Shown here piece by piece: positions 51,643 through 63,800 of a stretch of DNA of 64,000 nucleotides. This stretch comes from a virus, in IMG/VR virus record IMGVR_UViG_3300026488_000013, positions 62,001 through 126,000 of that record; one strand, 5' to 3'. The position numbers and the translations under genes are program-made. The notes below the pieces were generated by a model that was not told where the DNA came from, did not search any database, and saw only the letters and a program-made list of their open reading frames with translations. Position 1 is the first letter of the stretch. Each line of letters opens with the position of its first letter.

Positions 51643-54111
51643 TTACATAAATATCTTATCAAATGCACTTTCAACATATGTATCTTTTGTTTCAGTTAAC
51701 ATATTTCTAAGTGTCCGCTTTGAAGGTTCGTATAGAAATGCCAATATAGGAGATAATCTTTCAGATGCCTTGGGTAAGGGCAACTTCACAAACTTTGACA
51801 AATCTAATTCGTGGAGCTGGACATTATTATTGTGAATAAAGTATCTTAAGGTTCTATTTATATCGTCAACATCTTGCTCCGTTTTTGATTCGTTAACTTC
51901 TGTATCATTATCCAATTCTATATCTTCTTCTTGTTCTATTTCATTTTCTTCTTTCAAGAACCATAACGCACTCAATATAGTTTCAATCATTACAGATTTA
52001 ATAAGTTCTATCCCCAATAAAGTATCTGTTATTTCATCATATGCAGTAAATATATCTTTATCTATCATTTTGGATTTTATTATTTTTTCAATATTAACAA
52101 TTTTTGTAACAATATCGTCGTTTACCAATTTACCATTTCCTTTTACTTTAAATTTTATTATTCCATTTTCACCTATCTTAACGTCTATTAATTCTATTCT
52201 ATAATCATACCCATTCTCCTCTAGGAATTTGTTTACTTCATTTATCAACTGTTGAGGGGTATATTCTTTATTATGGATTTCGATATACCCGTCATCGGTA
52301 TTAAGTTCGATTTTGTATTTTTCTAATATTTCGTTGGGTATCTTGATTATCGCACGGCCGGATGTATGGAATGTGCGTAATATAAGTTGAGTAAACCTTT
52401 CAGTTATATATTGGATTGATAACATTCCCAGCTGTTTTGATTTTATGGATTCGTATCCTCCGCATTTTTTACATACTTTAAATCCAGGAAGTTTGCAGGT
52501 TATAGGGCTTCTTAATAGTATTTCTTTACCAATTATACTTTCGTAGTTATTTTTTGTTATTAAAATCTCTCTATTTAATTCTTCATCCTTGTAATATCTT
52601 CCTATCAAGGATTTGGCATGAACTTCATTTTTTACCTTTATTTTAAAATATTTATCAGTCCCGCAATCTTCCGTATCTTCATCAAACATTATAAATGATA
52701 GATTGTATAAACCTGTCCTTTGGAGAAATCCAGAGCGTGGCGTTTGAACCATTTTGTCAATCTCTCCTTTTCTTGCACCGTGTGCAGACATAAATAATTC
52801 TTTTTTTGTTAAACCTTTATTTAATGGATGTCTTACCGGTTCGGATTGAACTATATTTTTTGCATCCGCAAGAAAACCTTTCGTATATATTGTCTGTTCA
52901 ATTTGGTCTCTGGACGCTCTGGCCCCCGATTGATATATTTTCCAAAGTTCCGTATCTTTCTTTTCCATTTCTTTAAAAACTATTTCGGAATATTTATTTA
53001 AAAGATATAACCCAAATATTGGCTCGTTCGGAATGTTGTTTAATATCTTTTCCACTTCATCTTTGTTGGGGGTTATATAATCGTCCAACGTTAATTTTGG
53101 TGCAATTTTCGAATACGAAAATTCTGATAATACTAACATTATTTCGTGAAACAAATCTAAATATCTCCTACCAAATTTTTCCAAATCTTTATCTTCATAA
53201 AGTTTTTCTTCCTTGTTTAAATATTCGATTATTACTTCGTTCACAATTCTTACCTTTTTCTTATTTATATCAGTTTCCTTTAGATAAAGCTTTTTATTAA
53301 ACACTCTATAATTCAAGTAAACCAACCCATACGGTAATGTTATATTTTGATTTTTTATTCTTACTGCATACTTTCTTACATCCTCTTTAAACAGAATAAT
53401 TGGGTTGGGTTTAAAATCCTCAATCGAATCTATTTCAATTATTTTTTCAATATATTTCGTTGTCGATAACTGATTTAGTGCATATAAATATTCATGGCGT
53501 AATTTGTGTAAAAAATCATCATTTCTGTGGTATCTCAAGAATGTGGTTGCATGAATTCTCTTATTAAATATGTCTTGTTTTGCTTCAACAGTATTTATTG
53601 CATACTGTGCCATTGTGTCCTGCACAACTATATCATTTGCTACAAATGTGAAATTCTTATCCAGTGTCATGTCATATGCTGTTCCTTTTCCAGAATATCT
53701 TATTTCAATATCAGTTATAGGTATCCGTTTTACTTTATTATTTGGTAAAACTTTGATAAAGTATAGGGATTTCTTAATTTGGAAAGGCATATTTAAAATT
53801 TCTACAGGAGATATTTTTTCAAACTCGTCCAGCTCTATATTATAAACAATCAGCGAGTGGTCTCCAGATGCTTTAAATGGTTGAAATCTATTTCGTTTAT
53901 CTTTTATTTCGTAAAGGTCTAAGTTTTCATGGACAGAGAACTCAATTATTTTTGCTCTTTCAATTTTTCCAGTTTCCATATTAAGCGATTTTGTAAACAT
54001 ATCTTTCATAGGTTTATATTTGATTACTTTGACTCCATCGTTTCTTACATATTCATCAATTTTGATAAAAAATTCTTCTAGAAATTCTTTAACACCAACC
54101 ATTTTCTTCAT
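51643..54111 (-). CDS. rpoC: intein C-fragment fused to RNA polymerase beta' C-terminal part
   Basis: The frame opens at a TTG (54135); the first ATG is at 54111. Counting from the TTG (830 residues), 1-173 are intein and 174-830 are RNAP beta'. Extein landmarks: TMAQYAINTVEAKQD right after the junction (following the catalytic NADFDGD in other beta'), bridge helix SGARASRDQIEQ (403-414), trigger loop AHGARKGEIDKMVQTPRSGF (451-470), EDCGT (C491) with C547, C555 and C558 forming the second Zn site, and FTQLILRTFHTSG (581-593). The beta' N-terminal half with the catalytic Asp triad is not in the window. No Shine-Dalgarno sequence is visible. It is the last gene of its block. Confidence 0.92.
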   Translation of the reverse strand: MKKMVGVKEFLEEFFIKIDEYVRNDGVKVIKYKPMKDMFTKSLNMETGKIERAKIIEFSVHENLDLYEIKDKRNRFQPFKASGDHSLIVYNIELDEFEKISPVEILNMPFQIKKSLYFIKVLPNNKVKRIPITDIEIRYSGKGTAYDMTLDKNFTFVANDIVVQDTMAQYAINTVEAKQDIFNKRIHATTFLRYHRNDDFLHKLRHEYLYALNQLSTTKYIEKIIEIDSIEDFKPNPIILFKEDVRKYAVRIKNQNITLPYGLVYLNYRVFNKKLYLKETDINKKKVRIVNEVIIEYLNKEEKLYEDKDLEKFGRRYLDLFHEIMLVLSEFSYSKIAPKLTLDDYITPNKDEVEKILNNIPNEPIFGLYLLNKYSEIVFKEMEKKDTELWKIYQSGARASRDQIEQTIYTKGFLADAKNIVQSEPVRHPLNKGLTKKELFMSAHGARKGEIDKMVQTPRSGFLQRTGLYNLSFIMFDEDTEDCGTDKYFKIKVKNEVHAKSLIGRYYKDEELNREILITKNNYESIIGKEILLRSPITCKLPGFKVCKKCGGYESIKSKQLGMLSIQYITERFTQLILRTFHTSGRAIIKIPNEILEKYKIELNTDDGYIEIHNKEYTPQQLINEVNKFLEENGYDYRIELIDVKIGENGIIKFKVKGNGKLVNDDIVTKIVNIEKIIKSKMIDKDIFTAYDEITDTLLGIELIKSVMIETILSALWFLKEENEIEQEEDIELDNDTEVNESKTEQDVDDINRTLRYFIHNNNVQLHELDLSKFVKLPLPKASERLSPILAFLYEPSKRTLRNMLTETKDTYVESAFDKIFM

Positions 54112-54135
54112 AATTCTATCATATCCATAAATCAA
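53617..54135 (-). other. split intein C-fragment in RNAP beta' (atypical break after block A)
   Basis: Residues 1-173 read as a Hint domain without its first strand: IIEFSVHENLDLYEIKDK, block B-like KASGDHSLIVYN (His93), block F-like GTAYDMTLDKNFTFVAND (151-168), block G-like IVVQD. Block A with the catalytic Cys or Ser at position 1 is absent. An in-frame TGA lies nine codons before the TTG. The last intein residue is Asp173 instead of Asn, preceded by Gln instead of His. The +1 extein residue is Thr174. There is no endonuclease domain. The missing N-fragment would be very short, as in the atypically split TerL inteins of phages. Confidence 0.85.
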
Positions 54136-61912: not shown

Positions 61913-62613
61913 TACTTTAAATTTCTTATTGCATCGATTAATTCTATTACAAAACTCAAATTTCTATAGTATGGAACCTCTAGGATTTTATCTAATTCGC
62001 CATCTTTAATATCATATCCAAATATTTTATTTATTGCTCTTTTTATTATATATTTGGCTATATTGCTGCTTGTTATATCATCCTCATACTCGAATTCATA
62101 TATTATATCTTTATAATTTTCAATTTCATTTACTAGAATATCTTTCAAAATCTCTATAATTCTGTTATAAAATCTTTCATCTATAATTCTCTTCATCAAT
62201 GATTTTATTTTGAAAATTCCCTCGGTATGAGGGGATAATAATATTTTTGTAATATTTGTAGGAATATTTCCGAATTTTCTGTTAAAATACTCTTCAATCA
62301 AATACTCGAACTCTTTTCTAAGATACTCATTTTCAACCCAATTTATGTATTTGAGTTCCACTATAAGCTCCATTATATCTTTTCCATTTTTATCTTCTAT
62401 AATTTCTTTATCAGATATGATATAAATGTTAAAGTCATTGACTATTGGTGTGTCCTTTTCTATATTTATTATTGGCTCTAAATATATAGCATATATCTTT
62501 GTATTATTATCTGTTTTATATTTTTTATCTATTTTTGTCACGATTTTGACGGTTCTAGCCATCATAACCGATATATTTCCGTAGAAATATGAAAAAAAAT
62601 TAATATAAAGCAT
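61903..62613 (-). CDS. possible DNA polymerase C-terminal piece, or hypothetical protein
   Basis: A 236-residue protein overlapping the end of the polymerase palm/fingers gene by 14 bases, in a +1-shifted frame. Early text YFYGNISVMMARTVKIV stands where motif C (YGDTDSxYVxxDKV) would be expected, but the catalytic Asp residues are absent. Later parts show faint resemblance to the T4 polymerase palm and thumb (YLEPIIN, then TSSNIAKYIIKRA compared with MEPMID and TANDIAKY). If it is the polymerase C-terminus, it lacks the second catalytic motif as read. Starts at the MM of VMMARTV are possible. Function uncertain. Confidence 0.5.
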   Translation of the reverse strand: MLYINFFSYFYGNISVMMARTVKIVTKIDKKYKTDNNTKIYAIYLEPIINIEKDTPIVNDFNIYIISDKEIIEDKNGKDIMELIVELKYINWVENEYLRKEFEYLIEEYFNRKFGNIPTNITKILLSPHTEGIFKIKSLMKRIIDERFYNRIIEILKDILVNEIENYKDIIYEFEYEDDITSSNIAKYIIKRAINKIFGYDIKDGELDKILEVPYYRNLSFVIELIDAIRNLKYKM

Positions 62614-63760
62614 TTATTCTCTTCTCCAGGTTTTTGTTTAAATATTTCTGAACACCGGCCTGGGCGAATTTAATCATGAATTTTGAATTCATTGTTATTG
62701 GACTTCCTATATTTTTATCGTTTAGGATAAATGTAGGAACAATATTTACACCATATGATACCGCATTAAGTTGAGGTTTTACAACCTTTCCTTGTAGTTT
62801 ATCATAATATGAATATTTGAAGTTATCCCCTTTCTCATACCAATATGCGGAGGTTTTCTTTAGTTGTTTCCGCAAACTCATATAATCATCTATAAATCCA
62901 ACCATTATACCTACTTGGTTGTCGTGTTTTTCAAATAGTGCCCCACTAAATGTTAGAACATATTTTTTCAAATATTTCTCTATAAATTCATCGATAGTTA
63001 TTTCCCTGATTTTAATCTTATTACTGGTCGGATTATCAACTACTATTACTCTAAACTTTTCCCATTCTTTATCACTTTTTATACCTAAATATAGTTTTAG
63101 GTATTCTTTATATTTTCTAATATTACCCTTCGCTACAATCCAAAAGTATATCAATTTATTTGTTTCATCATCCTTATATGACAAAAGATGTGTATAGTTT
63201 TCTAGAAATGGTATTAATCTGGTTTTTAATACAATGTAATCCTCACCGTTCATTATTCCATCTAAAGTATATTCGGCAAAAACATACATGAGTTCATCCA
63301 ATATTTTTAAAGTGAATTTTAGATTGTTTTCTATAATCTCTTTTTTCTTGTTTGGCTTATACCATTCTACAAACGATAAAATTAGTCGATTAAATGATTC
63401 TTTAAACGAATTTTTAAGATTTAAAATCTTAGATTTTAAGACCGTTTTCTTCTTAGGTTTATCTGTGTTGACAAATTCTTGCACATATTTAGAGAACTTC
63501 CTTAATGCATCGATAAGCTTATACGTTTGGGGAGGATATACTCTGGCCCGAAGAGTAGTGAAGTCTATATTAAACATTTTTACTGTAGAAGGATACATGG
63601 ATGTGTTGTGAACAAGAATATAATAATCAGATTTTGGGTCTTTGGCAAAAAATCTTTCAGTATCTTCTACAGAAATATCATATACATAATCATCCTCAAT
63701 TTCTATAATTTCTATGCTTTCAATTTCGTCAATAAACCAAACTCTTCTTCTTTCTATCAT
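62600..63760 (-). CDS. polB: intein C-fragment fused to family B DNA polymerase palm/fingers
   Basis: A 386-residue protein with its own strong ribosome binding site (AAAGGGGG, 6 bases from ATG), so a separate gene rather than a remnant. Residues 1-52 are intein; from T53 the T4-like family B polymerase continues: TSMYPSTVKMFNIDF (motif A, missing its catalytic Asp), FSGALFEKH (271-279), DDYMSLRKQLKK, and motif B KPQLNAVSYG (328-337). The protein ends 49 residues after motif B, before motif C (DTDS). The N-terminal exonuclease half with the intein N-fragment is outside the window. The active site therefore needs at least three pieces. Confidence 0.9.
   Translation of the reverse strand: MIERRRVWFIDEIESIEIIEIEDDYVYDISVEDTERFFAKDPKSDYYILVHNTSMYPSTVKMFNIDFTTLRARVYPPQTYKLIDALRKFSKYVQEFVNTDKPKKKTVLKSKILNLKNSFKESFNRLILSFVEWYKPNKKKEIIENNLKFTLKILDELMYVFAEYTLDGIMNGEDYIVLKTRLIPFLENYTHLLSYKDDETNKLIYFWIVAKGNIRKYKEYLKLYLGIKSDKEWEKFRVIVVDNPTSNKIKIREITIDEFIEKYLKKYVLTFSGALFEKHDNQVGIMVGFIDDYMSLRKQLKKTSAYWYEKGDNFKYSYYDKLQGKVVKPQLNAVSYGVNIVPTFILNDKNIGSPITMNSKFMIKFAQAGVQKYLNKNLEKRINALY
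63605..63760 (-). other. split intein C-fragment in DNA polymerase (canonical break)
   Basis: 52 residues with block F DYVYDISVEDTERFFA (24-39) and block G YYILVHN (46-52), ending in the standard His-Asn, followed by Thr53 as +1 nucleophile. The size and position of the break match canonical split inteins (C-fragment of about 35-50 residues). The insertion point lies inside motif A, between D-L (T4 DLTSLYPS numbering) and T-S. Confidence 0.92.
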
Positions 63761-63800
63761 TTGTGCCCCCTTTCTCTTTTTTTTAAAAAATGGAAATTAT

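What the first reader, a model, noticed from the sequence alone, without database searches (positions are those of the whole stretch)
62600..63760. Fractured T4-like DNA polymerase with a canonical split intein inside motif A
The ORF opens with a strong ribosome binding site, then 52 residues of intein blocks F and G ending VHN, then T-S-M-Y-P-S. T4 polymerase motif A is DLTSLYPS, so the break lies between the catalytic Asp and the rest of the motif. The N-half must be encoded elsewhere and joined by protein trans-splicing to make an active polymerase. Split inteins are known in phage genes, but this placement leaves neither half with a complete active site.
Basis: partly seen in the sequence, partly recalled or inferred. 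Interest (0 to 1): 0.9.

Follow-up and report, generated by a model that had tools for sequence, protein, structure and literature searches.

The report
Phage DNA polymerase in three genes
This phage appears to make its DNA-copying enzyme from three separate genes, two of which must be stitched together by a split self-splicing protein inserted exactly inside the enzyme's catalytic centre, a new variant of an arrangement already known in other phages.

Summary
ORF 62600-63760 (- strand) starts with a 52-aa C-intein ending ILVHN and continues TSMYPS, the rest of family-B motif A. The predicted partner exists on the same 167-kb viral record, 3.6 kb upstream: a 508-aa protein with the exonuclease domain ending ...MDFDQ, then a 105-aa Ser1 N-intein. 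A distant relative (85.8-kb IMG/VR contig) carries the same intein unsplit at the same D-Q|T-S site; the two halves together are 65.5% identical to it (97 of 148 positions). So a cis intein was broken into a trans pair. Split inteins in phage polB, and three-gene polB (Aeromonas phage Aes123), are known; in all 8 named phages whose junction I could read they sit at motif C. New here: the motif-A site, scrambled gene order, UDG fusion, and a second split inside the RNA polymerase beta' catalytic motif of the same phage. Caveats: no bench test, motif B is not canonical, the C-piece linker is unassigned. New variant of a known kind.

The parts
62600..63760 (-). Middle polymerase piece (M), 386 aa: 52-aa C-intein plus 334-aa C-extein running from motif A (TSMYPS) through the fingers to just after motif B
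63605..63760 (-). C-intein, 52 residues, blocks F (YVYDISVEDTERFF) and G (ILVHN)
   Evidence: TIGR01443 above curated cut-off; 33 of 50 aligned positions identical to the unsplit intein of the relative
63587..63604 (-). Remainder of motif A, TSMYPS; +1 residue Thr. The catalytic Asp (D-Q) is on the partner gene
62750..62779 (-). Motif B region KPQLNAVSYG, not the canonical K-x3-N-S-x-Y-G that the relative has (KVLLNSLYG)
63766..63775 (-). Ribosome-binding-like AGAAAGGGGG, five bases upstream of the ATG
51643..54135 (-). RNA polymerase beta' C part: long C-intein (blocks B, F, G; ends VVQD) then TMAQYAIN..., 657-aa extein. Its N part lies outside the window at G000:37465-39411 and ends NADYDGD plus a 24-aa putative N-intein
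53617..54135 (-). C-intein of the RNA polymerase beta' fracture (173 residues from the TTG; an ATG lies 8 residues in)
   Evidence: PF14890 E 0.00018, 21.8 bits, below cut-off

Best explanation
The phage encodes its T4-type family-B DNA polymerase in three genes, all on the - strand, in the transcription order C piece, N piece, M piece (G000:132563-135085, 129378-130904, 124600-125760). Shown from sequence: the N piece holds the exonuclease domain and the catalytic Asp of motif A (D-Q), followed by a 105-aa N-intein with Ser1; the M piece holds a 52-aa C-intein, then TSMYPS, fingers and motif B; the C piece holds a family-4 uracil-DNA glycosylase, about 190 unassigned residues, motif C (YSDTDS) and the thumb. 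Inferred: the intein halves associate and splice in trans by the ordinary class-1 route with Ser1, block-B Thr/His, C-terminal Asn and Thr+1. This makes one exonuclease-to-fingers chain and restores D-Q-T-S-M-Y-P-S without a missing or extra residue. That chain then pairs non-covalently with the C piece to complete the palm with both catalytic aspartates. The trans intein arose by fission, at the usual endonuclease position, of a cis mini-intein like that of the relative, with four genes including a ThyX gene now between the halves.
For: Partner found where predicted. N-intein model TIGR01445 32.2 bits (cut-off 24.5) and C-intein model TIGR01443 19.7 (cut-off 15.6). Unsplit homologue at the same site in IMGVR_UViG_3300026382_000012: N piece covers its residues 1-465 at 40% identity, M piece its residues 475-791 at 34%. 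N-intein 105 + C-intein 52 = 157 aa against 154 aa unsplit; intein 97/148 identical against 139/362, 90/292 and 113/289 for the three exteins. In that relative the exo-to-motif-B gene also stops after motif B and the motif C-thumb gene is separate and upstream, so the second break is a lineage trait. A plain break between motifs B and C also occurs in Alishewanella phage Slicko01. Catalytic residues present, spread over three genes: DIE, FD and Y-N-I-V-D (exo) and motif-A Asp in N; YSDTDS and KKRY in C. No other PolB, PolA or PolIII-alpha found on the record. No intein model matched the C piece.
Against: No experiment. Motif B in M reads KPQLNAVSYG, off the canonical spacing, and ExoII reads GFYSDDFD where relatives have Asn: the enzyme may be altered or partly decayed. 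The link between M and C rests on homology only. The C piece's residues 326-512 are unassigned: an N-terminal-domain profile scored 3.1 bits, reached by 49 of 1000 shuffles; AlphaFold2 models were poor (mean pLDDT 36.9 and 42.9) and the fold search gave nothing below E 0.27. The record may be incomplete, so an intact polymerase elsewhere is not excluded. Only one relative supports the fission scenario.
Confidence: 0.75

Rival explanations
1. The split is degenerate: the intein halves no longer splice and the pieces are remnants, the phage using a host polymerase or one outside the contig.
For: Non-canonical motif B; ExoII Asn replaced by Tyr; the record is linear and possibly incomplete.
Against: All three ORFs are open over 386-840 codons; the intein is better conserved than its exteins (65.5% against 31-39%); intein splicing residues and catalytic carboxylates are kept.
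Confidence: 0.15
2. The pieces assemble without splicing, as plain split polymerases do, and the intein halves stay on or are trimmed.
For: Plain two-gene splits exist: Acj61 gp43A, Slicko01, and the M|C break here.
Against: Intein residues between the catalytic Asp and the rest of motif A would have to be tolerated in the active site; both intein ends keep their catalytic residues.
Confidence: 0.06
3. Assembly artefact: the genes are one gene broken and moved by misassembly of a metagenome.
For: Metagenomic viral record; single source.
Against: The break falls at the intein split point, with separate stop and start codons and a ribosome-binding-like site; the relative shows the same second break and the same order C before N-M; four other genes lie between the intein halves.
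Confidence: 0.04

Closest known systems
Aeromonas phage Aes123 split DNA polymerase (gp43A, gp43B1 with N-intein, VSR endonuclease, gp43B2 with C-intein; GenBank JN377899; Aes123 PolB1 split intein)
   Same: T4-type PolB in three genes, one break bridged by a Ser1 cysteine-less split intein, the other break plain (passages of PMC12707363 and PMC13014065)
   Different: There the intein is at motif C (YIDTD|S), the plain break is between 43A and 43B, genes are in order and an endonuclease lies between the intein halves. Here the intein is at motif A, the plain break is between motifs B and C, genes are out of order, no endonuclease was recognised between the halves, and the C piece carries a UDG.
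Pseudomonas phage MIJ3/PA5oct, Klebsiella phage KP13-7 and Salicola phage SCTP-2 PolB inteins
   Same: Split (MIJ3, KP13-7) or cis (SCTP-2) inteins in the polB of large phages (PMC6892783 passages)
   Different: All at motif C: YGDTD|S or YGD|TDS; motif A intact.
Relative IMGVR_UViG_3300026382_000012 PolB
   Same: Same intein allele at the same D-Q|T-S site, same break after motif B
   Different: Intein is contiguous, and a second intein sits at motif C (FFVHN|TDSLF); the UDG part cannot be judged because the contig starts inside that gene.
Nanoarchaeum equitans PolB split intein and archaeal/Mimivirus PolB inteins
   Same: Inteins at PolB active-site motifs, one of them naturally split
   Different: The N. 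equitans split and the Mimivirus intein are at position III, YGD|TDS (PMC549080 passages). The archaeal motif-A site (pol-a, DFR|SLYPS) is recalled, not looked up, and is one residue away from this one.

Membership tests
Split intein (class 1, split at the usual endonuclease position) | N-intein with nucleophile at position 1 and block B Thr/His | tested here: met
   Ser1, TENHS; TIGR01445 32.2 bits, cut-off 24.5
Split intein (class 1, split at the usual endonuclease position) | C-intein with penultimate His, terminal Asn, and Ser/Thr/Cys at +1 | tested here: met
   ILVHN|T; TIGR01443 19.7 bits, cut-off 15.6
Split intein (class 1, split at the usual endonuclease position) | Halves on separate genes that together make one intein | tested here: met
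   105 + 52 aa align end to end with the 154-aa cis intein, 97 of 148 identical
Split intein (class 1, split at the usual endonuclease position) | Splicing in trans | not testable with these tools
   needs protein
T4 gp43-type family-B DNA polymerase | Sequence match to the family in all parts | tested here: met
   phrog_262: N piece 1.8e-36, C piece 8.2e-16, M piece 1.7e-12
T4 gp43-type family-B DNA polymerase | Exo carboxylates, motif A and motif C aspartates | tested here: met
   DIE, FD, D in D-Q-T-S-M-Y-P-S, and YSDTDS by alignment; Y-N-I-V-D read from the N piece
T4 gp43-type family-B DNA polymerase | Motif B K-x3-N-S-x-Y-G | tested here: not met
   KPQLNAVSYG, 1 to 4 extra residues depending on the alignment
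T4 gp43-type family-B DNA polymerase | N-terminal domain | tested here: inconclusive
   possible in the C piece residues 359-458; 49 of 1000 shuffles score as high
Fractured gene with a homing endonuclease between the halves | Endonuclease gene between the intein halves | tested here: not met
   Four genes between: ThyX and three without a credible endonuclease match; best was PF09568 E 0.014, below its cut-off

The most novel reading that the evidence does not exclude
In one phage both the replication and the transcription enzyme are inactive as translated: the DNA polymerase is cut between its motif-A Asp and TSMYPS, and the RNA polymerase beta' is cut inside NADYDGD|TMA, each rejoined by its own, differently split, trans-acting intein. 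The DNA polymerase holoenzyme is then a two-chain enzyme in which a spliced exonuclease-to-fingers chain fits into a UDG-fused palm/thumb chain. Trans-splicing would so act as a switch or timer on phage replication and transcription, and similar undetected splits could explain the unexplained DxDxD disruptions of RNA polymerase genes in zeta crAss-like phages.
Probability: 0.3. Interest if true: 0.8.

Novelty: new variant of a known kind. Interest (0 to 1): 0.6.

Why it matters
It adds a motif-A split site to a family in which the phage examples I could read all split at motif C. Its cis relative makes the fission step directly visible. It offers a Ser1/Thr+1 split intein pair whose halves contain no cysteine by reading, the sought-after kind for protein labelling (PMC13014065 passages). 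The parallel split inside the RNA polymerase catalytic motif gives a concrete, testable explanation for polymerase genes that look broken at catalytic motifs in other large phages (PMC7886860, section 11).

Tried and rejected
Searches with single proteins in IMG/VR found no relative: C piece, M piece, N piece; tblastn of M in 50,697 phage records found none. Alignment searches found the same single close relative; the other 6 loci are more distant matches that I did not study. The 5 other viral loci carry an intein end followed by ribonucleotide-reductase-like sequence by my reading.

Idea that the C piece's residues 326-512 are the polymerase N-terminal domain: suggestive strand pattern only, not significant by profile, poor models, no fold match. 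Kept open. Idea that they are decayed fingers or exonuclease: 398 and 816 of 1000 shuffles score as high, rejected.

Idea that the M|C break is also an intein: no N-intein at the end of M and no intein in the C piece, rejected for this phage, although the relative has an intein at motif C.

Site survey: of 12 phage loci opened for inteins in PolB (L028, L029, L030, L051-L059) a junction could be read in 8, all at motif C; the four Lak phage loci (L055-L058) gave no readable junction with my patterns. A 13th opened locus, an unannotated faecal scaffold (L050), does not look like polymerase at its junction.

Full report
What was checked. The window is bases 62001-126000 of a 167,050-base viral record called G000 here. 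ORF 62600-63760 on the - strand encodes 386 aa. Its first 52 residues are a C-intein (TIGR01443 19.7 bits, curated cut-off 15.6; PF14890 E 0.0051, below cut-off) ending ILVHN, and the next residues are TSMYPS. The remainder matches T4-type DNA polymerase at positions 405-568 of phrog_262, E 1.7e-12. A ribosome-binding-like AGAAAGGGGG precedes the ATG.

The partner. A search of the same record with phrog_262 rang at two further places and with the intein splicing domain at three. The 508-aa N piece (L006:3879-5405, G000:129378-130904, - strand) has the exonuclease domain (PF03104 E 2.3e-9), ends ...LIMDFDQ, and continues with a 105-aa N-intein SLTYDQL... (TIGR01445 32.2 bits, cut-off 24.5). The stops reported inside the intein match arise, I infer, because the match runs past the end of the gene at 129378. 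Splicing would give D-Q-T-S-M-Y-P-S, which aligns without gap to D-L-T-S-L-Y-P-S.

The third piece. Motif C is in neither of these genes. It is in an 840-aa ORF (L006:7064-9586, G000:132563-135085) with a family-4 uracil-DNA glycosylase at its N-terminal side (PF03167 E 4.6e-17; NF040953 2e-14, below that model's cut-off) and polymerase motif C YSDTDS, KKRY and thumb (phrog_262 positions 567-835, E 8.2e-16). Order of transcription is therefore C, N, M, with other genes between. The stretch of about 190 residues between the glycosylase and motif C could not be assigned: an N-terminal-domain profile gave 3.1 bits, equalled or passed by 49 of 1000 shuffles, two AlphaFold2 models had mean pLDDT 36.9 and 42.9 and Foldseek found nothing with E below 0.27. 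No intein model matched this protein.

The relative. Scanning IMG/VR for V-H-N-T-S-x-Y-P-S (first Ser limited to TCN codons) gave one contig, IMGVR_UViG_3300026382_000012. Its 809-aa ORF holds exonuclease, an unsplit 154-aa intein at the same site, fingers and a canonical motif B, and stops after motif B. The N piece aligns with its residues 1-465 (40% identity), the M piece with 475-791 (34%). Intein identity is 97 of 148; extein identities are 139 of 362, 90 of 292 and 113 of 289. The motif C-thumb part is a separate ORF immediately upstream, cut by the contig's first base, and has its own intein end at FFVHN|TDSLF. So the break between motifs B and C is probably older than the intein fission, and the fission put ThyX and three unassigned ORFs between the halves. 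This evolutionary order is inferred from one relative.

State of the enzyme. The exonuclease and polymerase carboxylates are kept, spread over three genes. Motif B of M reads KPQLNAVSYG, whereas the relative has KVLLNSLYG; the spacing is off by one or more residues depending on the alignment. ExoII reads GFYSDDFD, with Tyr for the usual Asn. No other PolB, PolA or PolIII-alpha was found on the record, which may be incomplete. I therefore hold the three-gene enzyme as likely, not shown.

A second case in the same genome. The RNA polymerase beta' N part (L039:3466-5412, G000:37465-39411, 648 aa) matches RNA polymerase largest subunits (PF00623 E 1.3e-12; PDB matches) and ends ...ESFNADYDGD followed by 24 residues SVSQARVIIEFADMSSIILHLNPH and a stop. 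The C part (window 51643-54135) begins with intein blocks B, F and G (PF14890 E 0.00018, 21.8 bits, below the 35.8 cut-off) ending VVQD, then TMAQYAIN... and the rest of beta' (TIGR02386 7.9e-25, below that model's cut-off). In cellular enzymes NADFDGD is followed by QMA (recalled), so the rejoined text would be continuous. The genes lie about 74 kb apart. The short N part resembles atypically split inteins with short N-inteins described in passages of PMC13014065; that the 24 residues are an N-intein, and that the terminal Asp of the C part is a working intein end, rest on my reading; no model confirmed either. A 671-aa protein with weak homing-endonuclease matches (phrog_559 E 1.1e-8) follows the N part.

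Comparison with what is known. Split inteins in phage PolB are known: MIJ3 (passages of PMC6892783), Aes123 and relatives, CP21 and others (passages of PMC12707363 and PMC13014065; records listed). Aes123 already has a three-gene polymerase with one split intein and one plain break. Of 12 phage PolB-intein loci that I opened, a junction could be read in 8 and all 8 are at motif C; four Lak loci were not readable. Archaeal and Mimivirus PolB inteins use three active-site positions (passages of PMC549080); the motif-A position there is recalled as one residue away. PMC7886860 section 11 (that section read in full) reports DxDxD disruptions in RNA polymerase genes of zeta crAss-like phages without an explanation. 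My literature searches listed no paper that I recognised as describing a motif-A split intein in a phage PolB or a split intein in a phage RNA polymerase; they cover open-licence PubMed Central papers only, I read passages of few of them, and they are no proof of absence.

Verdict. The thing itself is a new variant of a known kind: new insertion site, scrambled three-gene order, UDG fusion, and a parallel split in RNA polymerase.

Noticed in passing
window 51643-54135 (-) and G000:37465-39411 (L039:3466-5412): RNA polymerase beta' is split inside its catalytic NADYDGD|TMA motif, apparently by an atypically split intein with a 24-residue N part; the genes lie about 74 kb apart.
   Followed up: partly
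L040:831-2849 (-), G000:7330-9348: A second beta' paralogue may carry a cis intein in the corresponding motif (LGAD|CNWDLIEV...GYVKKQ|CDGNLWS); this is my reading, no intein model matched.
   Followed up: no
L006:7064-9586 (-): Uracil-DNA glycosylase fused to the motif C/thumb part of the polymerase; Thermus phage phiLo has a UDG-like match in a protein named DNA polymerase I, and PDB 9qhs is a 1142-aa putative polymerase with a UDG-like match.
   Followed up: partly
L039:1327-3342 (-) and L010:1-1149 (-): Endonuclease-like genes (phrog_559, phrog_681) sit next to RNA polymerase beta' pieces in both places.
   Followed up: no
L009:1-411: The relative has a second polymerase intein at motif C (FFVHN|TDSLF), so its lineage had inteins at both catalytic motifs.
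   Followed up: partly
L037:1199-3837: Alishewanella phage Slicko01 encodes PolB in two genes with a plain break between motifs B and C, the same place as the M|C break here.
   Followed up: no
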